NCBI RefSeq assembly: GCF_017068395.1
Contig: NZ_CP070619.1
Location: forward strand, 992,001-1,056,000
Direction of reading: 5' to 3'
Origin: Rhodococcus pseudokoreensis
Lineage (GTDB): Bacteria; Actinomycetota; Actinomycetes; Mycobacteriales; Mycobacteriaceae
Length of the DNA stretch: 64,000 bases
A program made the position numbers and the translations under genes. Of the stretch, positions 41,418 through 63,331 are shown one piece after another. How positions within the stretch are numbered: the first letter of the stretch is position 1; each line of letters begins with the position of its first letter. Under the pieces are notes generated by a model. It was not told the origin of the DNA, did not search any database, and saw nothing but the letters and a program-made list of their open reading frames with translations.

Positions 41418-43280
41418 TTATTCGACGGTGACGGACTTGGCGAGGTTACGCGGCTTGTCGACGTCGTAGCCCCGTGTCTGCGCGACCTCCGCCGCGAAGA
41501 CCTGCAACGGCACCGTCGACAGCAGCGGCTGCAGCAGCGTCGGCGCCGCCGGGATCTCGATGAGGTGGTCGGCGAACGGCCGCACGGCCTCGTCGCCTTC
41601 CTCCGCGATCACCACGGTCCGCGCACCGCGGGCCTGGATCTCCCGGATGTTGCTGAGCAACTTCGAGTGCAGCACCGCGCGCCCCTTGGGCGACGGCATC
41701 ACCACGATCACCGGCAACCCGTCCTCGATCAGCGCGATCGGCCCGTGCTTGAGTTCGCCGGCCGCGAAGCCCTCGGCGTGCATGTACGCCAGCTCCTTGA
41801 GCTTGAGCGCACCCTCGAGCGCAACCGGGTAGCCCACGTGGCGGCCCAGGAACAGGACCGTCGACGACGACGCCAGCTCCCGCGCCAGCGCCCGCACCGG
41901 TTCCACCGTCTCGAGTACCCGGCTCACCAGAGCGGGCATCGCCTCGAGATCGGCGTACTCGCGTGCCACCTCGTCCGGATACTTGGTGCCACGGGCCTGT
42001 GCGAGAGCCAGACCGACCAAGTAGTTCGCCGTGACCTGCGCGAGGAACGCCTTGGTCGACGCGACACCGATCTCCGGACCGGCCCGGGTGTAGAGGACGG
42101 CGTCGGCCTCGCGGGGAATCTGCGCACCGTTCGTGTTGCAGACCGCCAGCACCCGCGCCTTCTGATCCTTCGCGTGGCGCACCGCCTCAAGGGTGTCGGC
42201 CGTCTCACCGGACTGCGAAATGGCGACGACCAGCGTCGACCGGTCCAGGACCGGGTCGCGGTAGCGGAATTCGCTGGCGAGCTCGACCTCGACAGGCAAC
42301 CGGGTCCAGTGCTCGATGGCGTACTTCGCGAGCAGCCCCGAGTGGTAGGCACTGCCGCAGGCGACGACGAAGACCTTGTCGACGTCGCGCAGCTCCTGAT
42401 CAGACAGTCGCTGCTCGTCGAGAACGATCTTCCCGTCCGCGAAGTGACCGAGCAGGGTGTCCGCGACCGCGCCCGGCTGCTCCTCGATCTCCTTGAGCAT
42501 GAAGTAGTCGTGGCCGCCCTTCTCGGCGGCGGCAAGGTCCCAGTCGATGCGGAACGGGCGGCCCTGCGCCTCGGATCCGTCGAAGTTCAGAATCGAGTAC
42601 CCGTCCGCGGTGATCACCACGACCTGGTCCTGTCCCAGCTCGACCGCGTCGCGGGTGTGCTCGATGAACGCCGCGACATCGGACCCGACGAACGTCTCAC
42701 CCTCGCCGACACCGATGACCAGCGGCGTCGAGCGACGCGCCGCGACGATGGTGTCCGGGTGATCGGAGTGCGTGAAGACGAGCGTGAACGCACCCTCCAG
42801 CCGGCGCAGCACGCTCAGCGCGCTCGCGACGAAGTCGCCTGCCGTCTCGCCCGACGCGTAGGCCCGCGCGACGAGGTGCACCGCGACCTCGGTGTCGGTG
42901 TCGCTGGTGAAGTCGATTCCGTCGTGCTCGAGTTCGGCCCGCAGCGGGGCGAAGTTCTCGATGATGCCGTTGTGGACGACGGCGACCGTGTTCCCCGCAT
43001 CACGGTGCGGGTGCGCGTTGCGGTCGGTGGGCCGGCCGTGCGTGGCCCACCGGGTGTGCCCGATCCCTGTGCTCCCGGTGAAGTGCTCGGCCCCGACCTC
43101 GTCGAGTTCGGCCTCCAGATTCGCGAGACGCCCCGCCTTCCGCTCGACCGCCATTCCGCCCTGCCCGTCGAGCACGGCGATGCCGGCAGAGTCGTATCCG
43201 CGGTATTCCATTCGCCGCAAAGCCTCCACGACAACAGTCAGAGCCTGCCGGTGGCCGACGTATCCCACGATTCCGCACAT
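41418..43280 (-). CDS. glmS: Glutamine-fructose-6-phosphate aminotransferase GlmS
   Basis: GlmS makes glucosamine-6-phosphate from fructose-6-phosphate and glutamine, the entry to peptidoglycan sugars. The 620-residue product begins MCGIVGYVG with the N-terminal nucleophile Cys2. The glutaminase domain (about 1-225) is followed by two SIS sugar-isomerase domains with SQSGETADT and the C-terminal KSVTVE end. No glmS ribozyme-like sequence was recognised in the 97 bases upstream. Confidence 0.97.
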   Translation of the reverse strand: MCGIVGYVGHRQALTVVVEALRRMEYRGYDSAGIAVLDGQGGMAVERKAGRLANLEAELDEVGAEHFTGSTGIGHTRWATHGRPTDRNAHPHRDAGNTVAVVHNGIIENFAPLRAELEHDGIDFTSDTDTEVAVHLVARAYASGETAGDFVASALSVLRRLEGAFTLVFTHSDHPDTIVAARRSTPLVIGVGEGETFVGSDVAAFIEHTRDAVELGQDQVVVITADGYSILNFDGSEAQGRPFRIDWDLAAAEKGGHDYFMLKEIEEQPGAVADTLLGHFADGKIVLDEQRLSDQELRDVDKVFVVACGSAYHSGLLAKYAIEHWTRLPVEVELASEFRYRDPVLDRSTLVVAISQSGETADTLEAVRHAKDQKARVLAVCNTNGAQIPREADAVLYTRAGPEIGVASTKAFLAQVTANYLVGLALAQARGTKYPDEVAREYADLEAMPALVSRVLETVEPVRALARELASSSTVLFLGRHVGYPVALEGALKLKELAYMHAEGFAAGELKHGPIALIEDGLPVIVVMPSPKGRAVLHSKLLSNIREIQARGARTVVIAEEGDEAVRPFADHLIEIPAAPTLLQPLLSTVPLQVFAAEVAQTRGYDVDKPRNLAKSVTVE

Positions 43281-43377
43281 GGTTCATCAGGGTACTTGGA
43301 CCGGCCGACGCCGCGAAGTCGGAGTGTGGGCCGCATCGGCTCTCTCGCCGGGCCGCGAATCGGATAACGTTCTCCCC

Positions 43378-44214
43378 GTGGCGCCGAAACCGAAGACCCT
43401 GGCCCGTGAACTGTCCAAGCGGGGACCGCACCGCGTGCTGCGCGGTGACCTCGCCCTCGCCGGACAGCCGGGCGTCGTATACACGCCCGAATCAGGCTTC
43501 AACCTGCCCGCCGTCGCGTTCGCGCACAGCTGGATGGCAGGTGCCGACCACTACCGGAAGACGCTCGAACATCTGGCGTCGTGGGGAATCGTCGTGGCCG
43601 CCCCCAACAGCGAACGCGGTCCCGTGCCCTCTCACCTGGGCCTCGCCACCGACCTGCGGGCCACCCTCGACATCTGTGTCGGTGTGCGTCTCGGTCCGGG
43701 ACAGATCAGCGTGCGGCCCGACCGCGTCGCTTTCGCAGGCCACGGCATGGGTGCGGGTGCGGCAGTGCTCGCCGCCGCCCAGCAGGACGTGGCTGCGGTC
43801 GCCGCCCTGTTCCCGGCGCCGACAGCGCCGAAGGCCGAGAGGTATGCGTCCAAGATCACAGCGCCGGGGCTCGTCGTGGCCGGTGCCGACATCGACACCA
43901 TGAACAGCAACGCCAAGGCGCTGGCCGAGGCGTGGGGCGGCGAGCACGTCCTGCGCGCCGTCAACGGCGCCTCGGAGTCCGGGCTCACCGAAGGTCGCCG
44001 CCTGCTGGGCGCACTCGGCATCGGCGGTTCGGAACGCAAGACGCAGCAGATCACCCGCGCACTGCTGACCGGCTTCCTGCTCTACCACCTCACCGAGGAC
44101 AAGAAGTACGACGTGTTCGCGGAGGCGGACGCCGAACTTCCCCACACCACCCTCGTCGATCCGCACGAGGAGCACACCAAAGCCGGGTTCCAGGGCGTGC
44201 TCCCGCACATCTGA
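43378..44214 (+). CDS. Alpha/beta-hydrolase-fold protein lacking the nucleophile Ser (Rv3438-like)
   Basis: This 278-residue protein is like a dienelactone hydrolase or PET-hydrolase-type fold. The start is GTG 43378. The strand pattern, AFAHSWMAGADHY and the elbow VAFAGHGMGAG are recognisable, but the elbow reads G-H-G-M-G where active enzymes have G-x-S-x-G, so Ser is replaced by Gly; the codon is GGC. Catalysis by the usual mechanism is therefore unlikely. It may be a binding or pseudoenzyme role. The gene is divergent from glmS and convergent with the type VII-like trio. M. tuberculosis has a similar gene beside glmS. Confidence 0.75.
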   Translation: MAPKPKTLARELSKRGPHRVLRGDLALAGQPGVVYTPESGFNLPAVAFAHSWMAGADHYRKTLEHLASWGIVVAAPNSERGPVPSHLGLATDLRATLDICVGVRLGPGQISVRPDRVAFAGHGMGAGAAVLAAAQQDVAAVAALFPAPTAPKAERYASKITAPGLVVAGADIDTMNSNAKALAEAWGGEHVLRAVNGASESGLTEGRRLLGALGIGGSERKTQQITRALLTGFLLYHLTEDKKYDVFAEADAELPHTTLVDPHEEHTKAGFQGVLPHI

Positions 44215-44223
44215 GCTACTCGG

Positions 44224-44442
44224 TCACACCAGCCAGCTGCGGGGACGGTAGTACTCGTCGTCATCGTCGAGGGTTCGCGGTCGCGGCGGCAACACCGGCG
44301 ACACCGCAGCCGCGGGCTCGCTGCGGCTCGCTGCGGCTGCCTCGTCTCTCGCTCTGCGTTCGTCGATCCGCTCCCGGAACATTTCCAGGTCGGCGCGCAT
44401 CTGTGCCCGTTGTGCCCGCAGCTGGGCGGCGCGGTGGCTCAC
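44224..44442 (-). CDS. Small charged protein, third gene of the glmS-glmM trio
   Basis: This 72-residue protein starts at GTG 44442, overlapping the previous stop as GTGA. Residues about 1-35 form an Arg/Glu-rich coiled-coil-like helix (AAQLRAQRAQMRADLEMFRERIDERR starts it), then a Ser/Ala/Pro stretch and an acidic DDDDEYYRPRSWLV end. It is too short for most automatic calls but the overlap and codon bias support it. It may bind the larger protein encoded upstream. Function unknown. Confidence 0.6.
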   Translation of the reverse strand: MSHRAAQLRAQRAQMRADLEMFRERIDERRARDEAAAASRSEPAAAVSPVLPPRPRTLDDDDEYYRPRSWLV

Positions 44443-46583
44443 AGCGGACCGGCCTCGGCCAGCTCGGCGCCGCTGTCGAGTCCGGCGACCGGTCCGGTCG
44501 CGAGTTCGGGTGCAGACCGCGGTTCCTGCGGCGGGGCCGGTTCGGCAGGCGCCGCGGGGACCGGCTCCGGCTGCATCGTCACCACCTGCGGCGGCGGGAC
44601 GGTCGCGGCGTCCCCGGCGGGTGCAGGGGCCGGTGCGTCCTCGTGGTCCGGCACGGCGTCCCCGACAGGCGGCCCGTCTTCGGTGGTCGTTGCCGATGCG
44701 CCCTCTAATCCAGCGTCGACGTGCGATTCCGGGTCCGGCTCGGCGGGCGCGCAGTCGGCACCGCCGGGGTCTCCATCGGCCGCAGCGTTTTCGGCGAGAA
44801 TCTGCGGCAGGCCGTCCGGGCCGATCTCGACCCCGAACCTGGCCGTCCCGCCGTGTCCGTCGCTCATCTCGAGATGAATCCCCTGACCGTCCGCATCGAC
44901 GGCCAGCGTCCACGATTTCCCGTCGAGGTCCAGTTCGAGACTCTTGCCGTGAGCCGGCTCGCCTCCGTCCGCAGGCGGATCGTCGAGTTCGTCGCGGAGG
45001 TCGTCGGGGTTGCCGTCCTCGTCGGCCCTGTCGCTGAGGCCCGAGAGGGTGTCCTCGATCAACGGGCGCAGGATCGACCCGAGATCCGCCAGCCCTCCCG
45101 CCAGTCCCTGCCGCACCATATCGCCCAGGCCGGGAACGTTTCCCGCGCCCGGGACTGCGCCCGGCGCCGGCACGAGCGACCCGGGAATACCAGGAATCCC
45201 GGGCATCGCGGGCACGACCGGAGCGGTCGTCATAGGTGCCGCGGACGCCGGCGGTGCGGCCCCGGTCGGAGAAGCCGCGGCGATCGGAGGTGCGGCGATC
45301 GGAGGGGCGGCGGCCGCCGGACCGGTGGTCGCATCGCCGCTACCGGATCGTGGCGGGAGGTAGGCGGGGCCGTCGTTCGCGGGTGCCGCGGCGGGTCCGG
45401 TCGGGGCAGCAGGTGCGGGACCCGGTCCGGGTGCGGCGGCCGGGACGGTGCCGGCGTTCTGCGCCTCGGGTGCACTCGGTGCGGGCGCCGGTTCGGGTGT
45501 GTCCTCGGGCCGGAACCCGGGCTGCACCTCGATCGACCGCGCCTCCGCGACGACGGCGTCGTAGGCGGCGTGCACCGCTTCGGCGCAGTCCGCGCAGGCA
45601 GCGGTGAACTCCTGTTGCTTCTCCTCGTACACGCGCCGGAAGTTCGCGTCGAGCCAGTCCTTGGTGATTCCAGCGGCCCGCCGCACCACGTCGTCGCGGT
45701 CGAGGCGACGCAGGGCACCGGCGCCCCCGTCCTTGTACAGGCCGTTCACGTGCCGGTAGTCGTCGTCGGCGAGTTCGGGGAACCAGTAGGACGCGTCTTC
45801 CATGCAGTCCTTCGCGACGGAATTGTCGCCGTCCTTACCCTCGGCGTAGATCTGCGCGAGGACGTCGATCTGCGCGGCGCTGTACCCCCCGACCGTCGGC
45901 TGGTGCAGCGACACCACCTTGTACGCCTTGTTCGTCACGGCGGCGCTCAGGGTGAGGTTCGCTTCGAACAGCACCTCGGCGAGGTCTCGGAGCCGATCGA
46001 CGGTGGCGGCGGACTCGACGTTCCGGCGATCAGCGGCGTCGATTGCTGCGGCGGCGGCGATTCCGCTCCACCCGGTTCGCACCGCGGTGACACATTTCTC
46101 GTTGTCGTCGAGTTCCGTGCGGGCCGCCTCGACGCTGCGTCCGAGGGTGTCGACGTCGCGGGCGAGCGCATGCAGGCGCATCCCCCGCTCGGCGTCGAAC
46201 CGCGCGTAGTAGTCGGTGAGTTCGAGGGATTCGTATCCCAGTCTTCTCGCGGCGGGCAGGAACAACTCGAAGAATTCGAGCCCGCGAGCGCCGAGATCGA
46301 GCATGTCCTCGGGATCGTTGAGCGAATCGGGGCGCAGGTGCTCGCCCAGCGCGAGCCGGGATGCGTTGGCGGCCTGGGCGTCGCTGCCGTCCTCGAGCAG
46401 TGCCGCGTACCGCTGGTCGGCGGACGGCGTCCGGTCGCGTGTGCCGAGTTCGTACTCGTCGAAGTACGGCTGCCACGACGACTTGTCTTCCTCCCGGGAG
46501 GCGGCCCACGCCTGGAGGAGTTGCTCCTTGAATTCGCGGCTCAGGTTCGGGTCTTCGATCAGCGTTCTGGGATCGGTGGTCAC
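44439..46583 (-). CDS. Large Ala/Pro-rich type VII secretion-like protein (Rv3439c-like)
   Basis: This is a 714-residue protein, longer than the 467 residues I recall for the mycobacterial relative. An N-terminal helical domain (1-350) has a W-S-G motif (172-174) between helices, like the WXG hinge of ESX proteins. Then follows an Ala/Pro/Gly-rich segment (about 380-520), a helix (GNVPGLGDMVRQGLAGGL), an acidic stretch, a beta-rich segment KSLELDLDGKSWTLAVDADG, and an Ala/Pro tail. It starts at GTG 46583, overlapping the EspC-like stop. It is probably a secreted or surface ESX-type protein. No signal peptide was seen. Confidence 0.72.
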   Translation of the reverse strand: MTTDPRTLIEDPNLSREFKEQLLQAWAASREEDKSSWQPYFDEYELGTRDRTPSADQRYAALLEDGSDAQAANASRLALGEHLRPDSLNDPEDMLDLGARGLEFFELFLPAARRLGYESLELTDYYARFDAERGMRLHALARDVDTLGRSVEAARTELDDNEKCVTAVRTGWSGIAAAAAIDAADRRNVESAATVDRLRDLAEVLFEANLTLSAAVTNKAYKVVSLHQPTVGGYSAAQIDVLAQIYAEGKDGDNSVAKDCMEDASYWFPELADDDYRHVNGLYKDGGAGALRRLDRDDVVRRAAGITKDWLDANFRRVYEEKQQEFTAACADCAEAVHAAYDAVVAEARSIEVQPGFRPEDTPEPAPAPSAPEAQNAGTVPAAAPGPGPAPAAPTGPAAAPANDGPAYLPPRSGSGDATTGPAAAAPPIAAPPIAAASPTGAAPPASAAPMTTAPVVPAMPGIPGIPGSLVPAPGAVPGAGNVPGLGDMVRQGLAGGLADLGSILRPLIEDTLSGLSDRADEDGNPDDLRDELDDPPADGGEPAHGKSLELDLDGKSWTLAVDADGQGIHLEMSDGHGGTARFGVEIGPDGLPQILAENAAADGDPGGADCAPAEPDPESHVDAGLEGASATTTEDGPPVGDAVPDHEDAPAPAPAGDAATVPPPQVVTMQPEPVPAAPAEPAPPQEPRSAPELATGPVAGLDSGAELAEAGPL

Positions 46584-46888
46584 CACTGCACCCCGTTCAC
46601 GTCGGCGACCATGTCGGCGTCCGTTCCGGAGTAGCGCGCCGCGGCGGCCCGGAACGCGTGACCGAACGATTCCGCGTCTGCGGCCCACTGCTCGAGCGCG
46701 ACCCCGACGACACCGAGGGCGTCCCGCACCGCGTCACCTTTCGCGGTGTAGTCGCGGCCCGCCTGCGCCCCGGCAAATTCCAGCCGGCCGGTCTCGACGG
46801 CCTGCTGTCTCAGGACCTCCGCCGACCGCAGCAGCCTGGTGCCCGCGTCCGTCACCACCGCGACGTCCACCTCGAGTCCCTCGCCCAT
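46580..46888 (-). CDS. EspC-like type VII secretion-associated protein (Rv3440c-like)
   Basis: This 102-residue helical protein resembles the EspC/DUF2580 family. The first helix includes AGTRLLRSAEVLRQQAVETG. The C-terminal part AARYSGTDADM has Tyr86-x3-Asp90, the YxxxD/E type VII secretion signal. A Trp lies at 68, outside a WXG turn. ATG 46888 follows a GGGTGGGG site. Its stop is overlapped by the large protein gene. The pair resembles EspA/EspC-type substrates and could be exported by an ESX system, perhaps the ESX-4 at 52-64 kb. That link is inferred. Confidence 0.72.
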   Translation of the reverse strand: MGEGLEVDVAVVTDAGTRLLRSAEVLRQQAVETGRLEFAGAQAGRDYTAKGDAVRDALGVVGVALEQWAADAESFGHAFRAAAARYSGTDADMVADVNGVQW

Positions 46889-46927
46889 TGCCCCACCCTC
46901 TCTTCGCGACCTACTGCATTAGACGCG

Positions 46928-46968
46928 ACAGCGCACCGATCGGTTCCCCCGGCCGATCGGTGCGCTGT
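46928..46968 (-). terminator. Terminator hairpin after glmM
   Basis: Arms ACAGCGCACCGATCGG and its complement (16 bases, perfect) flank a 9-base loop, six bases after the glmM stop. Confidence 0.8.
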
Positions 46969-46974
46969 GTCCGT

Positions 46975-48312
46975 TCACACGGAGGCGACGGTGCCCGCCA
47001 GTTCGTCGGCGAGTTTACGAGCCACTTCGAGGTCGGAAGCCTCGACCATCACCCGCACGAGTTGCTCGGTGCCGGACGGCCGCAGGAGCACCCGGCCGTT
47101 CTCGCCGAGGCTGCGCTCCGCGGCCAGTACCGCGTCGAGCACCACCGGTGAGGCGGCGACGGCACGTTTGTCGGCGACCTTGACGTTGATCAGCACCTGC
47201 GGGAGCGTCGTCATCGCCGACGCCAGTTCCGCGATCGGCTGCCCGGTTTCCGCCATCCGGCCCATCAGCCGCAGCCCCGTCAGCACTCCGTCGCCGGTGG
47301 TGCCGAAGGCGGGGAACACGACGTGCCCGGACTGTTCGCCGCCCAGGCTGAAGCCGCCGGATCGGAGTCCCTCGAGGACGTAGCGATCACCGACAGCCGT
47401 TGTGACCAGCGAGATTCCGGCCTCGCGCATGGCGATGTGCAGGCCGAGATTGCTCATGACGGTCGCGACGAGGGTGTCGTCGGCCAGTTCGCCCGCATCG
47501 CGCATGCCGAGGGCGAGCACGGTCATGATGGCGTCGCCGTCGATGAGGGAACCGCCTGCGTCGACGGCGAGGCATCGATCAGCGTCCCCGTCGTGTGCGA
47601 GCCCCAGGTCGGCGCCGTGCTGGACGACGGCCTTCTGCAGGCCCTCGAGGTGCGTCGATCCGCAGTTCTCGTTGATGTTGAGCCCGTCGGGTTCCGCGTT
47701 GATCGCGACGACGGTGGCGCCGGCGGCCCGGTAGGCGGCGGGTGCGACGTCCGAGGCCGCGCCGTGCGCACAGTCCACGACCACGGTCAGTCCGTCGAGG
47801 CTGTTCGGGAGCGCGGTCGTCAGGTGCTGCAGGTACCGGTCCGCGGCGTCCGGCACCGTGCGGACACGTCCGATCCCGGCCCCGGTGGGCGCCCGCCGGG
47901 TCGCGGTGCCGGTGGCGACGGATTCGATCCGGTCTTCCACCTCGTCGTCGAGTTTGTGTCCGCCTGCCGCGAAGATCTTGATGCCGTTGTCGGGCATCGG
48001 ATTGTGCGAGGCGGAGATCATGACACCGAGAGCCGCGTCCAGTTCCGCGGTCAGGAACGCCACCGCGGGTGTCGGCAGCACCCCGACGTTCAGGACGTCG
48101 ACGCCGGCAGACGTCAGGCCCGCGACGACCGCCGCCTCGAGCATTTCGCCGCTGGCTCTCGGGTCACGGCCGACCACGGCCGTCTTGCGTCCGCCCGAAC
48201 CCGGCGACGCCAGCACCGTCGCGGCGGCGGAGGCCACCTGCAACGCCAACTCGGCGGTCAGCTCGGTATTCGCGAGACCACGAACCCCATCCGTCCCGAA
48301 CAATCGACCCAT
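46975..48312 (-). CDS. glmM: Phosphoglucosamine mutase GlmM
   Basis: GlmM interconverts glucosamine-6-phosphate and glucosamine-1-phosphate for UDP-GlcNAc. The 445-residue product has the phosphoserine loop SASHNP with Ser102, the metal loop DGDADR, the sugar-binding GGEQSGH and the phosphate loop [14 protein letters not shown] 48312 was chosen over an upstream frame because it gives the [12 protein letters not shown] start typical of the family. It lies downstream of rpsI, after two hairpins. Confidence 0.96.
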
Positions 48313-50820: not shown

Positions 50821-50826
50821 TGCTGG

Positions 50827-51741: not shown

Positions 51742-51822
51742 CTCCACTCCCCCTCGATCGGTGTCGGTGACATCAGTATCCACCCACCAAAAGGCCTGAT
51801 CAATGCGCTAGCGTTCCATCAC

Positions 51823-52275
51823 ATGGATGATTCGTTGCGTCTGGACGGGCTCGATCGGCGGATCGTTGCGCGGCTGGAGCGCAACGCACGGTCCAGCTTC
51901 GCCACGATCGGCGCCGAGGTCGGGCTGTCCGCACCCGCAGTGAAGCGCCGGGTCGATCGACTGGTCGAGTCAGGAGTGATCACCGGATTCCATGCAGTGC
52001 TCGATCCCCGCGCCCTCGGCCCCGGCGTCGAGGTGTTCGTCGAGTTGTACTGCAGCGGTCGCACGTCGGCCGTCGAGATCGCGCGGATCGTGTCCCGCCA
52101 CACCGAGGTTCAGGAGGCGTACACCGTCACCGGCGACGCCAACGCCCTGCTCCGCGTCCGGACCACCGACACCGCGCACCTCGAACGAACGCTGGAGAAC
52201 CTGCGGTCGGAGCCAGCCGTACTCCAGACCAAGAGCAGTGTCGTCCTCAGCCGCCTGATTCCGCCCGCCGACTGA
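51823..52275 (+). CDS. Lrp/AsnC-family transcriptional regulator
   Basis: This is a 150-residue Lrp-type regulator: helix-turn-helix (about 8-55, LDGLDRRIVARLERNARSSFATIGAEVG onset, KRRVDRLVESGVI) followed by the RAM effector domain (about 65-145; TGDANALLRVRTTD). ATG 51823 is the start. It is divergent from the ddaH-rocD operon with 81 bases between, so it most likely controls that operon in response to arginine or ornithine. The same pairing exists as Rv2324 with Rv2321c-Rv2323c in M. tuberculosis. Confidence 0.88.
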   Translation: MDDSLRLDGLDRRIVARLERNARSSFATIGAEVGLSAPAVKRRVDRLVESGVITGFHAVLDPRALGPGVEVFVELYCSGRTSAVEIARIVSRHTEVQEAYTVTGDANALLRVRTTDTAHLERTLENLRSEPAVLQTKSSVVLSRLIPPAD

Positions 52276-52354: not shown

Positions 52355-52636
52355 TCAGAGCCACGCCGTGGCGTTCCGGTCTTCCGCGGTCTGCATGTCG
52401 ATGGCGCCGTCCTGGACGACCTTCGAGATCGTCTGCAGGACCTGGAGCAGATCCTCGTGAGAGGAGTCCCACTTGGCCTGCACAGCCTGGTAGTTGTCCC
52501 GCGCGCCGCTCTCCCACTGCGCCACGAGGCCGTTCACGTAGCCCTTGAGCTCGTCGTGCGTCTCCCGCAGCTTCGCTTCGTTCGACTTGATGTCGGCCGC
52601 CAGCGCCTGCAACTCGGCAAATCCGTACTTCAACAT
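52355..52636 (-). CDS. esxT: WXG100-family ESX-4 substrate EsxT
   Basis: This is a 93-residue helical-hairpin protein of the WXG100 superfamily, paired with EsxU. The central turn is QWESG (Trp41, Gly44), a W-x-x-G variant of the canonical W-x-G. The helices run about 5-38 and 46-85. There is no signal peptide. It lies 43 bases downstream of esxU, in the order known for Rv3444c-Rv3445c. It should be exported through the ESX-4 machinery as a heterodimer. ATG 52636 is the start. Confidence 0.85.
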   Translation of the reverse strand: MLKYGFAELQALAADIKSNEAKLRETHDELKGYVNGLVAQWESGARDNYQAVQAKWDSSHEDLLQVLQTISKVVQDGAIDMQTAEDRNATAWL

Positions 52637-52679: not shown

Positions 52680-52997
52680 CTAGATGTCGAGCGATCCCGA
52701 GGCTCCGGCCGAATGGATCGCGTCCTGGTTGGCCTGCTCGGCGGCGTCGTAGCCCTTGCCGTTCTCGCGGATCTTCACCGCAATCTCGTCCAGCGACTCC
52801 TGCATACGGCGCGAAGCATCTCCGTACCGTGCCATCAGGTTCATGAACGCCGTCTGGGCTCCACCCTGCCAAGCCGACGACGACTCCTCGCAACGGCCCT
52901 TGAGGCTGTTGATCGTGCCCTGCAGCTGGCTGTTCACCGTCTGCACGTGATTGGCCGCGACCTCCATCTGGCCGACATCGGTAATAACACCCGCCAT
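52680..52997 (-). CDS. esxU: WXG100-family ESX-4 substrate EsxU
   Basis: This is a 105-residue WXG100 protein: helix, turn W-Q-G (43-45), helix. The C-terminal helix contains Tyr83-x3-Glu87 in GYDAAEQ, the YxxxD/E export signal that the ESX translocase reads. The length matches Rv3445c. It is upstream of esxT and downstream of the Rv3446c-like gene after 132 bases, so the Esx pair probably has its own promoter. Confidence 0.88.
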   Translation of the reverse strand: MAGVITDVGQMEVAANHVQTVNSQLQGTINSLKGRCEESSSAWQGGAQTAFMNLMARYGDASRRMQESLDEIAVKIRENGKGYDAAEQANQDAIHSAGASGSLDI

Positions 52998-53129
52998 GTG
53001 TGACTCCTTCTGCTCTCGGTGCGGCGGCCCCCACTGGACTGCCCGAATTCACCCCTACACAAGATTGGACGCGCCATCCGCCCAATCGGTTCCACCTCTG
53101 TGGAAGATTTTCCGGCGAAGAGAACTGGG

Positions 53130-54518
53130 TCACTGGACGATCACCAGTGACCGCACGACGTCTTCGCACACGCTCTCGATCGATTCCCATTCCTCGGCCA
53201 GGAACTGGCAGCCGACGCTCACCTGAAGATCGCGTTCGACGAGTACGTGCCATCGCACGGCGGAGCTTTCGTCGGGGAACTCGCTGTACGCGATGCCGGG
53301 TCGACCTCCGAACACGACGTCGCGCTCGAGTTCGCCGAACAGTTCGGGCCGGCCGCGCTGCGCAATCTTCGACGCGAGCGTCGCCGCCACCTCGTCGTAT
53401 CCGGAACCTTCTCGAACCGCGGTCTGCGTGATGATGATTCGCCTGTCCGCTCCACCCGCGGGCACCAACTCCAGCCGTGGCACGGAGGAGGTCGACGCGG
53501 TGGGCGCCCGCTCCTTCCATCCGCTCGGCAGCGTCACGCGAATGCCGCCCATCTCGAGGACAGCGTCGGTCGTGGTGGTGGTCGGCACCGCGGACCGGGT
53601 GAGCGTCGGGGTCGGGGCCGCCGGGGCAGCGCTCGCGTCGAGTGCGCGGACCTTTTCGGTGCCGGCATCGGGCTCCCGAAGTGTGAAGACGAGGACGGCT
53701 CCGACGACCACTGCCAGCACCGCAGCCACTGCGAGGAACGTGGGCCGCACGTTCCGCCGATAGCCGCGATCCGATCCCTGTAGTGCCGGTTCGAGCCAGT
53801 TCGCCTGCGGTACAGCCATCGTCGGCGGCGCTTCATCGACGTCGACCACGCCGGCGGCGAGTGCCCGCGCAATCTCTTCACCGGTGACGATCCGGACATC
53901 GGTGTTCGGGGACGCGACCGCGATCACGGCGTCCCGCATCGATGCGCGCTCCTGCGAATCTCCGACTCCTGTCAGGAGCAGTCCGTCGACAGGGCGATCG
54001 CCGCGGGCCCGTGCGCCGAGTTCCACGATCGCCGCAGCCCACTCGTCGATCCCCTCGTCGGCGCAGAGCGACGAGTCGTGCTCGCATGCGACGACCCGGT
54101 ATCCGCCGACCTCGCCGACCACGTAACTGGCCGTGGCTCCCATCGTCCGGCTTTCGAGCACCAGCCATCGGCCACCGGACGAAGCAGCACTCTCGGCCGC
54201 CGCCACGGCGACCGGAACCAGCACGGTGTCGGCGGCGATTCGTGAACCCGCGGCGGCGAGCACGTCCCGACGGGCGGAACCCCACTCCGTCGGGTGCGAC
54301 AGGACCGCCGTCGCGACCGGCGGCGCCTCCCCCGCATGGCCGATCACAGACCGGAACACCGCGGTCAGTGCGTCGGACACCGCGAGAACACCACCGTCGA
54401 CGTCGACGTATTCGTCGTCGACGAAGCAGAGCGGTGTCGTCTCGTGTACCGCCCTCGTCGCGCCCTGCACGCAGGACCACATGCCGGATTCAGTGAGGTG
54501 AATCGCGACCGACGACAT
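53130..54518 (-). CDS. Type VII secretion-associated protein (Rv3446c-like)
   Basis: This 462-residue protein has a cytosolic N-terminal domain (about 1-225), whose ATAVLSHPTEWGSARRDVLAAAG and later VPVAVAAAESA segments look like part of an Hsp70/actin fold. One transmembrane helix (260-280) follows, then a Thr-rich linker and an external domain (about 315-462; IRVTLPSGWKER, ERDVVFGGRPGIAY). It belongs to the family called type VII secretion-associated protein, Rv3446c type. ATG 54518 shares one base with the eccC4 stop. Its presence in ESX-4 loci suggests a structural or regulatory role; the mechanism is unknown. Confidence 0.83.
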   Translation of the reverse strand: MSSVAIHLTESGMWSCVQGATRAVHETTPLCFVDDEYVDVDGGVLAVSDALTAVFRSVIGHAGEAPPVATAVLSHPTEWGSARRDVLAAAGSRIAADTVLVPVAVAAAESAASSGGRWLVLESRTMGATASYVVGEVGGYRVVACEHDSSLCADEGIDEWAAAIVELGARARGDRPVDGLLLTGVGDSQERASMRDAVIAVASPNTDVRIVTGEEIARALAAGVVDVDEAPPTMAVPQANWLEPALQGSDRGYRRNVRPTFLAVAAVLAVVVGAVLVFTLREPDAGTEKVRALDASAAPAAPTPTLTRSAVPTTTTTDAVLEMGGIRVTLPSGWKERAPTASTSSVPRLELVPAGGADRRIIITQTAVREGSGYDEVAATLASKIAQRGRPELFGELERDVVFGGRPGIAYSEFPDESSAVRWHVLVERDLQVSVGCQFLAEEWESIESVCEDVVRSLVIVQ

Positions 54519-57500
54519 CACAGCGGGGGCATCCACGCGAGCTGGATCAGGCCGGTACCCGCGCGGTTGACCAGCGTTCCGCGTCCGGGAGGCATCGCGC
54601 TCGGACGAACGGTGCCGATGAGGTTGCCTTCCTCCCGGTTGCCGCTCATCACGAGGCCCGTGGATTGCAGATCGCGCAGGCGTGCGATGACCGGTTCGTA
54701 CATTGCTCGTGCGGCACCGCCGGAGCGTCGCGCGATGATCAGGTGGAATCCGATGTCACGGGCGTGCGGCAGGAATTCGACGATTGCGGAGACGGGGTTG
54801 CCGCTCGAAGTCACGACGAGGTCGTAGTCGTCGATGACGACGAAGATTTCGGGGCCCGACCACCAGGACCGGTCGCGCTGCTGCTGGCGGCTGAAACCGG
54901 GACCGGGCATGCGCTCCTTCAGCAGGAACGCGAGATCCCTCATGTTCGTCCCCAGCACGTCCTCGGACGGTGCGTACGAGGCGAGGTGCTCCGTTTCGAC
55001 GACACCGAGCATCGTGCGCCGGTAGTCGCCGAGAATGATCTTCGCCTGTTTGCTCGTGTTCGACGCCATGATGCCCTCGCAGATGTTCCGCAGGAGCGTC
55101 GTCTTGCCGCATTCGGTGTCGCCGAACACCAGGAAGTGGGGCTGTTCGGCAAAGTTGAGGAATGTCGGGGCCAACTCGGCCTCGTCGAGGCCGATCGGAA
55201 TCTGCAGACATGCCTGCGCAGGGTCGAGGTAGGACGGCCACCCCCCAGCAGCGTGGAGCAGATCTTCGCGCGCGATCTGTGCGGGCAGCATTCGCACTGC
55301 CGGAGCGGGCCGGCCGTGGGTCGCGGCGACGACGGCCGACACCGCGTGCGCCACCCCGGTTGCCAGGTCGGTCGGATCCGAACTTCCGTCGAATCTCGGC
55401 AACCCGACCAGCAGATGCAGGCTGTCGCGGGTCATGCCGCGTCCGGGCCTGCCTTCGGGAACGAGCGCCGCGGTCTTGCGACCGAGGTCGGAATCCGAGG
55501 GATCACCGAGCCGCAACTCGATGCGCGTGCCGAGCTGATCCTTGAGCGCGGGCCGGACCTCGCCCCACCGTGACGCGGTGAGGACGACGTGCACGCCGTA
55601 CGACAACCCCTGCGACGCAAGGTTGGTGATCTGCTGTTCGAGAGCCTCGAAATCCTGACGGATGCTGCCGAACCCGTCGATCACCAGGAACACATCGCCG
55701 AACGGGTCCTGCGCGACCCCCGCAGCCGGGCCGCCACTAGCGGGGTCGGACGCGCGCAGACGGCGGAACTCCGCCATCGACTCGACACCGAGTTCGCGGA
55801 AACGCTCCTCGCGTTGACGCACGATGGTGTTCATCTCGGCGATGGTGCGCCGCACCCGGTCCACGTCGAGGCGGTTGGCGACCGAGCCGACGTGCGGAAG
55901 TCCCGACAGTCCGGCGAGCGTGCCGCCACCGAAGTCGAGGCAGTAGAACTGCACCTGCTCCGCGGAATGGGTGGCGGCCAACGACGTGATGAGCGTGCGG
56001 ATCGCAGTGGACTTGCCCGATTGCGGTCCACCCACCACCGCCATGTTGCCGGTGGAGCCGGACAGATCCACGACGAGCGGGTCGCGCCGCTGGTCGTAGG
56101 GCCTGTCGATGATCCCGATCGGTGCACGCAGCGAGCTCAGCGCGGGAACCGGTTCGGTGAGAACGGACCTCGGCAGCATCTGGTCGAGGGTCGGCGCGGC
56201 GTCGAGGGGCCGCAGCCACACCTCGTGGGCGCGCGGTCCGCGGTCCTTGATCCGCTCGACCACGACGTCGATGGTGGTGCGGGTTTCCGCAGCCTCCTCG
56301 GTCAGGTGGAGCGACTGTGGTTCGTCGAGGATCTCGACGACGTCGACGGCGACGGGCGCGGCCGTGAAGATCTTCGGCCGCAGTTCGACCGCCGCCTCAC
56401 CCGGCCGCCGCACGGTGTCGACCCGACTGCCCTCGTAGGTGCCGGACACGTACGAGGCCTGGAAACGGACGATCTCCGCGGAATCGCATTTGAGGTATCC
56501 GGCGCCCGGAGTCGCGGGCAGGTGGTAGGCGTCCGGCACGCCGAGCACGGTGCGCGATTCGTTGGCCGAGAACGTCTTGAGGCCGATCCGGTACGACAGG
56601 TGGCTGTCGAGGCCTCGCAGTTTGCCTTCTTCGAGCCGCTGACTCGCCAGGAGCAGGTGAATGTGCAGCGAGCGGCCGAGCCTGCCGATGGCGACGAAGA
56701 GGTCCGCGAACTCGGGCTGCTGACTGAGCAGTTCGGAGAATTCGTCGACGACGATGAACAGTGCGGGCAGCGGGTCGAGGTCGGCGCCGGCCTGGCGGGC
56801 CTTCTCGTATTCGGTGACGTTCGCGAAGTTCCCGGAGGAGCGCAGGAGTTCCTGGCGTCGGTTCATCTCACCGGCGAGGGCGTCCCGCATCCGGTCGACC
56901 ATCGCGAGTTCCTCGGCGAGGTTGGTGATCACCGCGGCGACGTGCGGCGCGTCCTCGAGACCGAGGAACGTGGCGCCGCCCTTGAAGTCGACGAGGACGA
57001 GGTTGAGCGCGTCGGGCGAATGCGTCGAGATCAGCCCGAGCACCAACGTCCGCAGGAACTCCGACTTACCGGAACCGGTGGCACCGATGCACAGGCCGTG
57101 GGGCCCCATTCCGTTCTCGGCCGACTCCTTGAGGTCGATCTCGACCGGGTGACCGTCGACTCCCACACCGATCGGGACCCGCAGCCGGTCGCGGCCCTGG
57201 CGGGGCAGCCACGCGTGATCCGGGTTGAGACGGCCGACGTCGCCGATCCCCAGCATCTGGCTCCACGTCTGTACCGGCTGGTCGTCGTCGCCGGCGTCCA
57301 CCGCCGTCTGCGACGCCGTCCGGTACGGCGCGAGCCGCCGGGCCAGTGTTTCCGCCTGGTGAGCGCTGACGAGGTCCGCTGTCGCGAACATCTCCACTCC
57401 GGCTCCGCTGCGGGCGCCGAGGGATCCGTCCTGCGCGACGAGTTGGAGGCCACGTGTGGCCGTCAGTCGCGGGCAGAAGCCGCTGATGTCGACAACGGAG

Positions 57501-58519
57501 ACCGCGTCGACGCCGCCGTCGGTGATCATTCCCGATTCGCCCTCGAGGATCCCGCCGTCGACGACGATGACGAACTGCGGAACACCGGGCGCGGCGGGCG
57601 CGTTGCGCGAGAACCGGTTTCGCATCGACAGCTGCGGGCCGAGCGCGGATTCGAGTTCGAGGATCGAGCCGTAGATCATGCGGGACGAACCGACACCGTC
57701 GGACGAGTCCGGATGCTGCGCGTGCGGCAACCACTTCGCCCAGTCCCACTCGTGCTCCGTGTCCGGGCCGCACACGACGGCAACGAGGAGATTGTCCGGG
57801 CCGTGGAATGCGCACAATTGCATGAGCATCGACCGCACCAGGGACCGTGCGGTACCCCGGTCCCCTTCCACGGAGATGGCCGCGAAGCCGCGCAGCGACA
57901 CCGCGGTGGGCAGATCCTGAACGACGGAGTGCGCGCGGACGAAGCGACGAAGCGACACCGCTGCAACCGGTTCCAGGTCCTCCACCGGTCCGGTCTCCGG
58001 CGCGATCAGGCGGGTCGCGAGGCGCTGGCTTCCCCGGCCGACGCGCACGTGGCAGTAGTCGGGGTCGGTGATGCGGCGTTCCCACATGCGCGCCGTGCCT
58101 GCGAGGGTCCAGAGCAGGCCGGGTTCGGGGTGGCTCCAGTCGAGCGCTTTTCGCTGCTGCTCGCCGGTCTCGTTGACGTCGCGCCGCAGCTGATCGAGGT
58201 AGCGCAGGTAGTCCTTGCGGTCTTCGTTGGCCTCCGCCGCTTTCGGACCGCCACGGCCACCGCCGGCCAGCATGCCGAGCATCGACACCATCATCATGAC
58301 GGGAAAGAGCATCGACATCGGATTGCGGGCCATGCCCGACGAGAACATCAGGGCCATCATCCCGACCATGGCGACGACCATGACCACGGGAAGGAGCTTG
58401 GTCAGAAGGTTTCCGGGAACCAGACGTGGAATCTCGGGCGGAGCCTGCAGGCTCACTTCGCCGCCCGGAATGCGTGGTACTTCCCGTCGCGCTTTGCGCA
58501 CGAACCGAATAGTGCTCAC
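54518..58519 (-). CDS. eccC4: Type VII secretion ATPase EccC4
   Basis: EccC4 is the FtsK/SpoIIIE-type motor of ESX-4, 1333 residues, with EccCa and EccCb fused. Two N-terminal transmembrane helices lie at about 40-60 and 70-86. Three P-loop ATPase domains follow: GATGSGKS (479-486), GGPQSGKS (830-837) and GDTECGKT (1133-1140). Domain 1 has the Walker B-type FIVVDEF with Glu593; domain 2 reads FLVIDGF without the acidic residue, and domain 3 has IFVVIDDYD. Domain 1 is thus the most complete. GTG 58519 is the start. The next gene, Rv3446c-like, starts on its stop codon. Confidence 0.95.
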   Translation of the reverse strand: MSTIRFVRKARREVPRIPGGEVSLQAPPEIPRLVPGNLLTKLLPVVMVVAMVGMMALMFSSGMARNPMSMLFPVMMMVSMLGMLAGGGRGGPKAAEANEDRKDYLRYLDQLRRDVNETGEQQRKALDWSHPEPGLLWTLAGTARMWERRITDPDYCHVRVGRGSQRLATRLIAPETGPVEDLEPVAAVSLRRFVRAHSVVQDLPTAVSLRGFAAISVEGDRGTARSLVRSMLMQLCAFHGPDNLLVAVVCGPDTEHEWDWAKWLPHAQHPDSSDGVGSSRMIYGSILELESALGPQLSMRNRFSRNAPAAPGVPQFVIVVDGGILEGESGMITDGGVDAVSVVDISGFCPRLTATRGLQLVAQDGSLGARSGAGVEMFATADLVSAHQAETLARRLAPYRTASQTAVDAGDDDQPVQTWSQMLGIGDVGRLNPDHAWLPRQGRDRLRVPIGVGVDGHPVEIDLKESAENGMGPHGLCIGATGSGKSEFLRTLVLGLISTHSPDALNLVLVDFKGGATFLGLEDAPHVAAVITNLAEELAMVDRMRDALAGEMNRRQELLRSSGNFANVTEYEKARQAGADLDPLPALFIVVDEFSELLSQQPEFADLFVAIGRLGRSLHIHLLLASQRLEEGKLRGLDSHLSYRIGLKTFSANESRTVLGVPDAYHLPATPGAGYLKCDSAEIVRFQASYVSGTYEGSRVDTVRRPGEAAVELRPKIFTAAPVAVDVVEILDEPQSLHLTEEAAETRTTIDVVVERIKDRGPRAHEVWLRPLDAAPTLDQMLPRSVLTEPVPALSSLRAPIGIIDRPYDQRRDPLVVDLSGSTGNMAVVGGPQSGKSTAIRTLITSLAATHSAEQVQFYCLDFGGGTLAGLSGLPHVGSVANRLDVDRVRRTIAEMNTIVRQREERFRELGVESMAEFRRLRASDPASGGPAAGVAQDPFGDVFLVIDGFGSIRQDFEALEQQITNLASQGLSYGVHVVLTASRWGEVRPALKDQLGTRIELRLGDPSDSDLGRKTAALVPEGRPGRGMTRDSLHLLVGLPRFDGSSDPTDLATGVAHAVSAVVAATHGRPAPAVRMLPAQIAREDLLHAAGGWPSYLDPAQACLQIPIGLDEAELAPTFLNFAEQPHFLVFGDTECGKTTLLRNICEGIMASNTSKQAKIILGDYRRTMLGVVETEHLASYAPSEDVLGTNMRDLAFLLKERMPGPGFSRQQQRDRSWWSGPEIFVVIDDYDLVVTSSGNPVSAIVEFLPHARDIGFHLIIARRSGGAARAMYEPVIARLRDLQSTGLVMSGNREEGNLIGTVRPSAMPPGRGTLVNRAGTGLIQLAWMPPL

Positions 58520-61728: not shown

Positions 61729-63219
61729 CTACTTGGATCCTGACGCGACAGCGGCAGGGTCGAGATCCGGCGCGACACCGTCGTGTGCGACGAGCGCCGA
61801 CGACTTTCCGAGCGAGGGGCCCTGCGCCAGGAGGCCCAGTATCTGCCAGGGCGCGAGAGGCTGGGCGCCGTCGAGCCCCAACGCCTTGGCGGAGTCCTTG
61901 TCCGCGTCCTTGTCCGGGATGCCGAACCGAACTCCCGTGTCCGCGACGAAGAACCAGCTGTCGCGTCGTGTGCTCGTGGGCTCGATGCCGGTGGACTGCA
62001 CGAAACCGCTGGTCCCCGGTTGTACGTAGACCGTGTCGGCGTTGTCGCCCGCGTCGTCCGCCTGGGCCAGTTCGACCGCGCGGGCGTCGCCGGGGATCGG
62101 AAGGGTCCGGCCCGCGACCAGCGACAGTTCGGCCGCCGGACCGCTCGAGCCGGTCTCGTCCGGCGCACGGAGAGGCTTCCAGGTCAGGCAGCTCACGGGA
62201 CTGTCGGAGGCATCGACGATCGTGGGTGCCGACTCGGGGAAACTGTCCACCGCAAGCTGTTCCACGGAGGGGATTCGCTTGGTGGCGTCCGGCGGGACGC
62301 TCGACATCTCGGTCTCGCCGTGCGAGTCCGACAGGAAGATCAGGTTCGCGACGGCCGAGCTGATCTTCTGGATGCCGTCGCTAAGGACCACGTAGTGGGC
62401 GGTCTCGGAGCCGATGAGCGCCGTGAACACCGATCCCACGACCTTGTCCTGCAACGGATACCGGGGGCTGCTCCCGGCCCCCGGAATGACGGGTGCCGTG
62501 AGTGGCGGCACTTCGGGGATGGCGTTGATGAGACCCTTGCTCACCGGGCGCGGCCGGGCGCCTTCGAGGCCCAGCGCACGGGTGACAGCGGGGTCGTCCA
62601 GGTCGACCCGAGCCCGCTTGCCGCCGTATATCAGGTACGCCGCGTCGGAAGTCGACGCGAGCAGTCCCTGATCTCCCGTGAGGGTCCCGCCACCGTTGGA
62701 GGCCTCCGGCTGGCCGACGATGACCGATGTTGTGACGGAATGACTTCCGTCGGCTGCGATCGAATCGCACACGGTCCACGGTGTCTTCGCCGCGGGATCT
62801 CCGGCCGGCAGTGCCGACGGCGCGCCGGGAATCCCGACGAGGGCACCGCGCGGGCGGGTGTCGAGTTCGGATTCCTTGACGATCACCGGATTCTCGGACT
62901 TTCCGACGATGAGCCGTGCGGACGCGAGATTCAGGACGGGACGGAGTGTGTCGCCCATGACGACGAACATGGCGCCCGAATCCTTGCCGACGACGATCGA
63001 CGCGTCACCGATCTTGTCCTGCGGACGGAACAGCGCCAGCGCGGCGCACCCGGCGAGGCCGAGCGACGCGATCACGACCCCCACCGCGAGTGCGCGCGAC
63101 TGCGACCGCATGGGGTCGTGCAACATTCGGACGTCGCGGCGCACCAGGGCGTGCTCCATCCTTCTGACCAGAAAGCGATACCCGTTGACCTGCCACCGGG
63201 TAGTGGGTGTTACAGCCAT
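61729..63219 (-). CDS. eccB4: Type VII secretion protein EccB4
   Basis: EccB4 is a single-pass membrane component with a large extracytoplasmic domain. The 496-residue product has a short basic N-terminus (TRWQVNGYRFLVRRMEHAL onset, the EccB signature), a transmembrane helix (about 43-63) and repeats of the external domain. Two Cys (in PWTVCDS and SCLTW) may form the conserved disulphide. ATG 63219 follows GGGGGAGG. It converges with mycP4 and is divergent from eccE4. Confidence 0.93.
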   Translation of the reverse strand: MAVTPTTRWQVNGYRFLVRRMEHALVRRDVRMLHDPMRSQSRALAVGVVIASLGLAGCAALALFRPQDKIGDASIVVGKDSGAMFVVMGDTLRPVLNLASARLIVGKSENPVIVKESELDTRPRGALVGIPGAPSALPAGDPAAKTPWTVCDSIAADGSHSVTTSVIVGQPEASNGGGTLTGDQGLLASTSDAAYLIYGGKRARVDLDDPAVTRALGLEGARPRPVSKGLINAIPEVPPLTAPVIPGAGSSPRYPLQDKVVGSVFTALIGSETAHYVVLSDGIQKISSAVANLIFLSDSHGETEMSSVPPDATKRIPSVEQLAVDSFPESAPTIVDASDSPVSCLTWKPLRAPDETGSSGPAAELSLVAGRTLPIPGDARAVELAQADDAGDNADTVYVQPGTSGFVQSTGIEPTSTRRDSWFFVADTGVRFGIPDKDADKDSAKALGLDGAQPLAPWQILGLLAQGPSLGKSSALVAHDGVAPDLDPAAVASGSK

Positions 63220-63331
63220 TGTTCCTCCCCCGTGCTGCACAGCGCTCGGGGTGACACAGTACAGTTCCATCGACAATCTTCACGGCGGACGGGTACGGGT
63301 CTGCTGGGTTCAGGTATTCGGGGGAGGAACC

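What the first reader, a model, noticed from the sequence alone, without database searches (positions are those of the whole stretch)
44224..46888. Type VII-like trio between glmS and glmM: EspC-like protein, a 714-residue WSG protein and a 72-residue coiled coil
Three overlapping genes form one unit. The first has a YxxxD export signal, the second an ESX-like helical domain with W-S-G and a long Ala/Pro tail, and the third is a short charged helix overlapping by GTGA. They lie away from the ESX-4 core yet between two cell-wall sugar genes. They may be an ESX-4 substrate system with its own chaperone, and I know of no defined function.
Basis: partly seen in the sequence, partly recalled or inferred. 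Interest (0 to 1): 0.7.

Follow-up and report, generated by a model that had tools for sequence, protein, structure and literature searches.

The report
Conserved ESX-4-linked three-gene secretion cassette
Three small neighbouring genes in a soil bacterium appear to form a cargo package for ESX-4, a protein-export machine whose cargo is largely unknown, because they share its likely switch-on signal and decay in lineages that lost the machine.

Summary
The trio is real: EspC-like (102 aa), a 714-aa protein and a 72-aa protein, joined by two GTGA overlaps. The large protein has a WXG100/EsxB-like hairpin with W-S-G at the turn. Relatives sit near glmM in many genera of the family and in two other families.

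Three findings tie it to ESX-4. (1) An ECF-type promoter, GGAAC-N16..18-[CG]GTC, precedes the trio in 56 of 68 loci (20 of 27 genera) and the EsxU/T pair in 54 of 69, against about 4% of random windows. (2) In two lineages without ESX-4 the trio is broken or partly deleted while the genes between persist. (3) The large and third proteins have conserved C-terminal tails, LxEAGPL and SWLV.

The M. tuberculosis counterparts should be Rv3439c/Rv3440c (gene order recalled); Rv3439c is "Ppr2", a Rip1-PDZ interactor.

Best reading: an ESX-4 substrate pair with a helper, in the ESX-4 regulon. Export is untested. Some ESX-4 genomes lack the trio, and the Mycobacterium loci lack a W-tailed third gene.

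The parts
46922..46947 (-). ECF-type promoter GGAAC-N17-CGTC (GGAACCGATCGGTGCGCTGTCGCGTC) upstream of the trio
   Evidence: motif in 56 of 68 relatives (20 of 27 genera); total length 26 in 51 of 55 aligned cases
46930..46966 (-). strong inverted repeat between glmM and the trio (glmM terminator-like by position); overlaps the promoter
   Evidence: 96-base stretch folds at -42 kcal/mol, z -3.1; the terminator scan did not list it (no T run)
46580..46888 (-). EspC-like protein, 102 aa (helical T7SS partner, by homology)
   Evidence: (PF10824 E 0.0023, below cut-off)
46619..46633 (-). YxxxD export-type motif (YSGTD, residues 86-90)
44439..46583 (-). large protein, 714 aa: WXG100-like head plus Ala/Pro linker and conserved C-tail; likely orthologue of Rv3439c/Ppr2
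45912..46175 (-). WXG100-like hairpin (residues 137-224, W172-S-G174 at the turn)
   Evidence: (EsxB 3fav_A E 1.9e-5 for the family profile)
44442..44477 (-). C-terminal tail DSGAELAEAGPL (residues 703-714)
   Evidence: LxxAG tail in 46 of 60 family members; 120 of 6436 ORFs of the same stretches
44224..44442 (-). third protein, 72 aa, charged, with C-terminal tail
44227..44262 (-). C-terminal tail DDEYYRPRSWLV of the third protein
   Evidence: W-L near the end in 31 of 37 third ORFs that overlap by 4 bases; Trp in last 7 residues in 745 of 6436 control ORFs
53068..53093 (-). same ECF-type promoter upstream of esxU (GGAACCGATTGGGCGGATGGCGCGTC)
52680..52997 (-). EsxU-like protein of ESX-4
52355..52636 (-). 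EsxT-like protein of ESX-4, ends ..NATAWL
54518..58519 (-). EccC of ESX-4
61729..63276 (-). EccB of ESX-4
46975..48312 (-). glmM (upstream neighbour)
43294..44214 (+). DLH/PETase-like hydrolase, convergent with the trio (start codon not determined)
41418..43280 (-). glmS

Best explanation
The trio is a substrate cassette of the neighbouring ESX-4 type VII secretion system and belongs to the ESX-4 regulon. SHOWN by sequence: conserved operon and synteny, EspC-like partner, WXG100 head, the same ECF-type promoter motif upstream of the trio and of esxUT, conserved C-terminal tails on the large and third proteins, and decay or partial deletion of the trio in lineages that lost ESX-4. INFERRED: an ECF sigma factor (probably SigM) switches on esxUT and the trio together. 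The EspC-like protein pairs with the WXG100/PPE-like head and supplies the YxxxD export signal. The short C-terminal tails (LxEAGPL on the large protein, SWLV on the third) dock the complex on the ESX-4 ATPase EccC or a shared receptor. The large protein is exported, and its long Ala/Pro linker lets it span or sit in the envelope. The third protein escorts it and may stay behind.
For: Synteny GlmM-EspC-large-small-DLH(opposite)-GlmS with ESX-4 on the far side of rplM-rpsI-glmM. Family profile against EsxB structures E 1.9e-5; 11 of 36 members match WXG100; hairpin with WSG at the turn. YxxxD/E in 32 of 68 EspC-like proteins of the own family and, read from the printed ends, in 12 of 12 loci of two other families. 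GGAAC-N16..18-[CG]GTC upstream of the trio in 56 of 68 against 136 of 3400 random windows, in 20 of 27 genera, and upstream of EsxU/T in 54 of 69 against 116 of 3450. Loss: G230 and G105 have no EccB and no EccC beyond FtsK-level matches. G230 keeps only a broken remnant. G105 keeps an EspC-like ORF but lost the large gene. rplM, rpsI, glmM, hydrolase and glmS persist around them. LxxAG tail 46 of 60; EAGPL in 27 with 20 different DNA spellings, so selection acts on the protein. No stretch of transmembrane strength in any of the three, which speaks against an ordinary Sec route.
Against: No secretion, binding or expression data were available. ESX-4 genomes without the trio at this site exist: four genomes of genus g4 (gaps 116-190 bp), G060 (332 bp) and G033, so ESX-4 does not need it. 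14 of 60 loci had no third-ORF candidate and 9 of the 46 candidates lack the Trp tail; these include all 7 Mycobacterium loci. Only two loss events are informative (G230 with its relative G251, and G105); within the genus the Fisher test gives p = 0.048. YxxxD/E is missing in 36 of 68. The window's own proteins score below Pfam cut-offs. The promoter motif is missing in 7 of 27 genera, among them all 3 Corynebacterium-like loci of g3 tested, and was found in only 4 of 12 loci of the other families. Loci of one genus are not independent.
Confidence: 0.72

Rival explanations
1. The large protein is mainly a regulator of the Rip1 site-2 protease (the Ppr2 role reported for Rv3439c) and has nothing to do with secretion; the ESX-like fold is only ancestry.
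For: Review passage: the Rip1 PDZ domain used as yeast two-hybrid bait found Ppr2 = Rv3439c. A long tail with a conserved C-terminus could suit a PDZ-type interactor.
Against: It does not explain the promoter shared with esxUT, the EspC-like partner, or decay on ESX-4 loss. Mycobacterial C-termini end ..LPQVGE/Q/S, not a typical hydrophobic PDZ ligand (recalled). I saw one yeast two-hybrid report, second-hand.
Confidence: 0.1
2. The trio is a polymorphic-toxin-like unit: the large protein is an ESX-4 effector with a toxic C-terminus and the third protein is its immunity partner.
For: A three-gene layout resembles LXG effectors with two partner proteins (abstract); homologues in other families have frames of 545-1049 aa.
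Against: Tails are low-complexity and no enzyme domain was found in the proteins scanned. The third protein's C-terminal tail is conserved across genera, unlike what one expects of a variable immunity protein. The Mycobacterium loci have no W-tailed third gene.
Confidence: 0.07
3. The trio is a passive neighbour carried along by the conserved ribosomal/glm block; its association with ESX-4 is only shared vertical descent.
For: The whole block is old and mostly inherited together.
Against: In G230, G105 and G251 the block between ESX-4 and the trio is intact while the trio is broken or gone. The shared promoter motif is specific.
Confidence: 0.06
4. The proteins are ESX-4-associated but stay inside: a cytosolic chaperone or assembly complex that loads EsxU/T (EspG-like role).
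For: Promoter shared with esxUT; the third protein's W-L tail loosely resembles the EsxT tail ..NATAWL.
Against: A WXG100 head with a YxxxD partner is the usual signature of substrates, not chaperones (recalled); no EspG family match in the Pfam scans.
Confidence: 0.12

Closest known systems
Rv3440c-Rv3439c of M. tuberculosis (Rv3439c = Ppr2)
   Same: Same place by recalled H37Rv gene order (glmS Rv3436c ... glmM Rv3441c, then ESX-4). Described in print as 'alanine and proline rich' and 'conserved hypotheticals'. Mycobacterium relatives of the large protein lie next to glmM in the stretches examined; named species.
   Different: No W-tailed third gene in the 7 Mycobacterium loci. C-terminus TPCEIAA[DEG][EQ]LPQ[VA]G[EQS] instead of LxEAGPL. 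I saw it described only as a Rip1-PDZ partner. The M. tuberculosis sequence itself was not retrieved here.
EspC/EspA-type and PE/PPE substrate pairs of ESX systems
   Different: No Pfam PE/PPE match; no EspG seen; BAR domains and coiled coils reach the same Z. Present in Corynebacterium-like genomes (genus inferred) and in other families, whereas the published model (PMC4791881, passages) adds pe/ppe later with plasmid ESX clusters.
LXG toxin with dual targeting factors Lap1/Lap2 (T7SSb)
   Same: One large substrate with two small helical partners, one carrying FxxxD (abstract).
   Different: T7SSa/ESX-4 in Actinobacteria; no LXG or toxin domain found; the third protein is not shown to be a WXG100 hairpin.
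EsxU/EsxT (ESX-4 WXG100 substrates; ExsI in C. glutamicum)
   Same: Same promoter motif and same WXG100 superfamily; secretion by ESX-4 reported for them (passages).
   Different: 100-aa proteins inside the ESX-4 cluster; the trio lies beyond rplM-rpsI-glmM and its large member has a long tail.

Membership tests
WXG100 / Esx superfamily (large protein) | W-x-G at the turn of a two-helix hairpin | tested here: met
   Helices 137-171 and 175-224 around W172-S-G174; this W is 90% or more conserved in 36 rows
WXG100 / Esx superfamily (large protein) | Sequence-profile relation to Esx proteins | tested here: met
   Family profile against EsxB 3fav_A E 1.9e-5; 11 of 36 members match PF06013 at E<=0.01. 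The window protein alone matches none
EspC family PF10824 (first protein) | Score above the Pfam gathering cut-off | tested here: not met
   18.8 against 23.5 bits; relative P0056 carries a precomputed PF10824 hit
EspC family PF10824 (first protein) | C-terminal YxxxD/E motif | tested here: met
   YSGTD in the window, Y and D invariant in 9 of 9; 32 of 68 in the family, 11 of 27 genera; 12 of 12 in loci of two other families (read from printed ends)
PE/PPE pair | PE and PPE domain match by sequence | tested here: not met
   No PE/PPE family in Pfam scans
PE/PPE pair | PPE fold | tested here: inconclusive
ESX-4 substrate | Export that depends on EccC/EccB of ESX-4 | not testable with these tools
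   No proteome data; only genomic association
ESX-4 regulon under an ECF sigma factor | Shared promoter motif upstream of trio and esxUT | tested here: met
   56 of 68 and 54 of 69 loci; present at both places in the window
ESX-4 regulon under an ECF sigma factor | The sigma factor is SigM | not testable with these tools
   SigM consensus recalled; the paper on SigM and ESX-4 was seen only as a title in a reference list and is not held
LXG-Lap1-Lap2 type targeting-factor system | Two small WXG100-like partners that bind the substrate head | tested here: inconclusive
   One EspC-like partner; the third protein matches no family at a meaningful score and was not folded

The most novel reading that the evidence does not exclude
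The large protein is an exported feedback ligand: made with EsxU/T under an ECF sigma factor (SigM-like), carried across the membrane by ESX-4, it then binds the extracytoplasmic PDZ domain of the Rip1 site-2 protease (as reported for Rv3439c/Ppr2) and tunes release of that sigma factor, so that the secretion system reads its own export activity. Steps in hand: shared promoter motif, gene retention that follows ESX-4, Rip1-PDZ report. Missing: export, the sigma factor's identity, and any effect on Rip1. The sidedness of the Rip1 PDZ domain and the Ppr1-anti-SigM link are recalled.
Probability: 0.1. Interest if true: 0.87.

Novelty: new variant of a known kind. Interest (0 to 1): 0.68.

Why it matters
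ESX-4 is regarded as the ancestral ESX system, yet its cargo beyond EsxU/T is largely unknown; a 2025 paper states that identifying further ESX-4 substrates 'will be essential' (PMC11791044, passage). This cassette is a specific, widely conserved candidate with its own promoter, partner and tails, so it can be tagged, deleted and tested directly. It also offers an old PE/PPE-like pair next to ESX-4, which bears on how PE/PPE proteins arose, and a possible link from ESX-4 to Rip1 signalling through Ppr2.

Tried and rejected
Spurious third ORF: rejected; homologues at the same place with a conserved tail.

Tail conservation as a DNA-level effect of the gene overlap: rejected; EAGPL is spelled 20 different ways in 27 cases.

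Choice bias in the third-ORF count: one search picked a W-ending frame where one existed (37 of 46). Counting only the ORF that overlaps by exactly 4 bases gives 31 of 37.

W-L tail as a genome-wide signal: a TCN-coded pattern in the own genome gave 3 matches against 5 in the reversed controls, none a convincing gene end; the pattern would miss AGC-coded serine, as in the window's own gene.

PDZ ligand at the C-terminus as the common function: weakened, because mycobacterial tails end in E/Q/S. The 72 of 79 count for TPCEIAA is circular, since that peptide was a search pattern, and is not used.

sigma-70 promoters: none found; one terminator-like site against 1.3 expected. Class-level search: 9 of 148 genomes, all of the own family. 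The second AlphaFold job and the Foldseek search never ran.

The Fisher test was fed 19 same-genus genomes where the table has 20; corrected (0.05 to 0.048; no change of odds). M. tuberculosis itself was not among the 80 named loci, so orthology with Rv3439c rests on its Mycobacterium relatives and recalled gene order.
Full report
WHAT IS THERE. Three minus-strand genes, 46888 to 44224, overlap as GTGA twice. They encode an EspC-like 102-aa protein with YSGTD near its end, a 714-aa protein, and a 72-aa charged protein. Upstream lies glmM, downstream a convergent DLH-like hydrolase and then glmS. ESX-4 (esxT 52355, esxU, EccC 54518-58519, EccB 61729-63276) lies beyond rpsI and rplM. None of the three has a hydrophobic stretch of transmembrane strength. 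The window is from a Rhodococcus opacus-like genome: named relatives of the large protein include R. opacus, R. koreensis and R. wratislaviensis.

DISTRIBUTION. With the domain profile, 207 of 251 Mycobacteriaceae genomes have a hit at E<=1e-3; by my hand count from that table, 184 are at E<=1e-7. Weak hits near 1e-5 can be EsxT itself. The stretches fetched mostly show GlmM, EspC-like, large, small, hydrolase, GlmS in that order, sometimes with other genes between; in L120 the large gene lies on the other side of glmM, and L054 and L056 have no glmM in the stretch. The EspC-like gene was found in 68 of 77 loci that contain glmM. Several genomes without a strong profile hit still hold a positional cassette; in four Corynebacterium-like loci (genus inferred, not named) the large proteins end in KTGEW, KAGTW, HAGRW and SAGGWS. 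The cassette also occurs in two other families of the order, f14 and f2; f14 is probably Pseudonocardiaceae (inferred). In 12 of 12 such loci an EspC-like protein was found, each with YxxxD/E in the printed end. The large frames are 545-1049 aa, and 11 of 12 loci have nearby a small protein with a W-containing acidic tail such as DEEDFSQRSWLQ (10 by the script, L258 by eye; in L257 and L261 the listed one lies upstream). At class level only own-family genomes matched, 9 of 148. Named Mycobacterium species carry the large protein (80 of 180 confirmed loci returned). The loci called Mycobacterium below (L062, L111-L116) share genus code g29 with G157, whose contig matches the Mycolicibacter arupensis record of L137.

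TAILS. In 46 of 60 large proteins the sequence ends in an [LV]xx[AV]G motif within three residues of the stop, against 120 of 6436 ORFs of the same stretches, family members included. Exact EAGPL occurs in 27, with 20 distinct 15-base spellings. Mycobacterium has TPCEIAA[DEG][EQ]LPQ[VA]G[EQS] in 7 of 7. A compact 197-aa homologue (L130) has lost the linker but ends ..GELILAGDR. Of the 60 loci, 46 have a candidate third ORF and 37 of these have Trp within the last 7 residues, always with a W-L near the end; the control for Trp is 745 of 6436. That script preferred W-ending frames; counting only ORFs that overlap by exactly 4 bases, 31 of 37 end in W-L, in 11 of 16 genera. The 14 loci without a candidate and the 9 candidates without Trp include all 7 Mycobacterium loci. 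The likeness of this tail to the EsxT C-terminus (..NATAWL in the window) is short and only suggestive.

PROMOTER. GGAAC-N16..18-[CG]GTC lies upstream of the EspC-like gene in 56 of 68 loci, against 136 of 3400 random 280-base windows from the same stretches; by genus, 20 of 27 have it at least once, and the misses include all 3 Corynebacterium-like loci of genus g3 tested. In 51 of 55 aligned cases the element is exactly 26 bases long, with consensus gGGAACCg....g....c.g.tGCGTCcaA. The same pattern lies upstream of the EsxU/T pair in 54 of 69 stretches, against 116 of 3450. In the 64-kb window a stricter form occurs three times: trio, esxU, and one copy at 22687 inside a coding frame. In the loci of the other families it was found in 4 of 12, against 7 of 600. 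The form agrees with ECF sigma factors; SigM is named from recall and from the title of a 2018 PNAS paper seen in a reference list. The paper itself was not available.

LOSS WITH ESX-4. EccB was absent in 8 of 251 genomes. Of these, G013, G200 and G231 have EccC pieces, so they look like assembly gaps. G230, G105 and G034 are complete and have no EccC beyond FtsK-level matches. G234 and G241 are incomplete. G230 is a rhodococcus whose 7,804,765-bp contig equals the R. jostii RHA1 chromosome as I recall it. It keeps rplM, rpsI, glmM, hydrolase and glmS at 95-99% identity, but between glmM and the hydrolase has only a 0.98-kb remnant: the EspC-like gene and the WXG100 head are gone, the rest of the large gene lies in different frames, and the third gene's frame has a stop inside. 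A second rhodococcus without EccB, G251 (EccC not searched genome-wide), has no trio but a fossil promoter and an unrelated 3.2-kb insert. G105 keeps an EspC-like ORF 70% identical to that of its relative G118, but nearly all of the large gene is deleted. ESX-4 and the trio lie on opposite sides of retained genes, so they were lost by separate changes. The statistics are modest: Fisher p 0.0012 over all genomes, ignoring relatedness and using my hand count, and 0.048 within the genus. In g4 the trio is absent whether or not ESX-4 is present, so G034 is uninformative. ESX-4 genomes without a trio at the site are g4 (L225, L227, L229, L230), G060 and G033.

LITERATURE SEEN. PMC6963305 (one passage): the Rip1 PDZ bait found Ppr1 and Ppr2, Ppr2 = Rv3439c. 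PMC7000724 (passage): Rv3439c 'alanine and proline rich', listed non-essential. PMC5602289 (passage): only a SNP listing. PMC7771538 (passage): Rv3440c 'conserved hypotheticals'. PMC11791044 (passages): further ESX-4 substrates remain to be identified. PMC9401124 (passages): EsxU/T are ESX-4 substrates. PMC9600955 and PMC10653861 (abstracts and outlines): partner proteins of T7SSb effectors. PMC4791881 (passages and its ESX-4 section): ESX-4 as ancestral, pe/ppe added later on plasmids. PMC12607788 (abstract, passages): C. glutamicum ESX-4 secretes ExsI. PMC8262963 (passages): no link to the trio. PMC4821874 (passages): nothing on the trio or ESX-4. That the trio is undescribed as an ESX-4 unit rests on the ten searches in an open-access library only.

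VERDICT. The cassette is very probably part of the ESX-4 regulon and most likely supplies an exported pair with a helper. Export, partner binding and the role of the tails are inferred.

Noticed in passing
window 49594-52275: Between rplM and esxT this genome has an ornithine-type aminotransferase, a DDAH-like hydrolase (PF19420, E 1.9e-5) and an Lrp/AsnC-like ORF (names of the first and last recalled), which separate ESX-4 from the ribosomal/glm block.
   Followed up: no
window 44800-44950 (residues about 545-600 of the large protein); L262, L263, L267: The tail holds a short beta-type module (KSLELDLDGKSWTLAVDADG..GTARFGVEIGPDGLPQI); by eye, similar modules appear twice in the larger homologues of the other families.
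   Followed up: partly
L244:14865-18017: In the EccB-negative rhodococcus G251 the site holds a fossil promoter followed by an insert with a TnpB-like ORF (IS605-type, by recall) where relatives carry the trio.
   Followed up: partly
window 22313-23359: A 348-aa ORF resembling an anti-sigma-D factor (recalled) contains the third strict GGAACC..CGTC match of the window, inside the coding frame, probably by chance.
   Followed up: partly
L256, L257, L259-L263, L265-L267: Loci of other families carry small proteins with an acidic W-tail (DDDFSNNSWMK, DEDFANRDWFV), in some loci two of them or one upstream of the EspC-like gene; four such proteins scanned matched no Pfam or NCBIfam model above cut-off.
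   Followed up: partly
L054, L055, L056 (genome G022, genus g23): Some genomes carry two or three copies of the large-protein domain; L054 and L056 have no glmM in the stretch and different C-termini.
   Followed up: no
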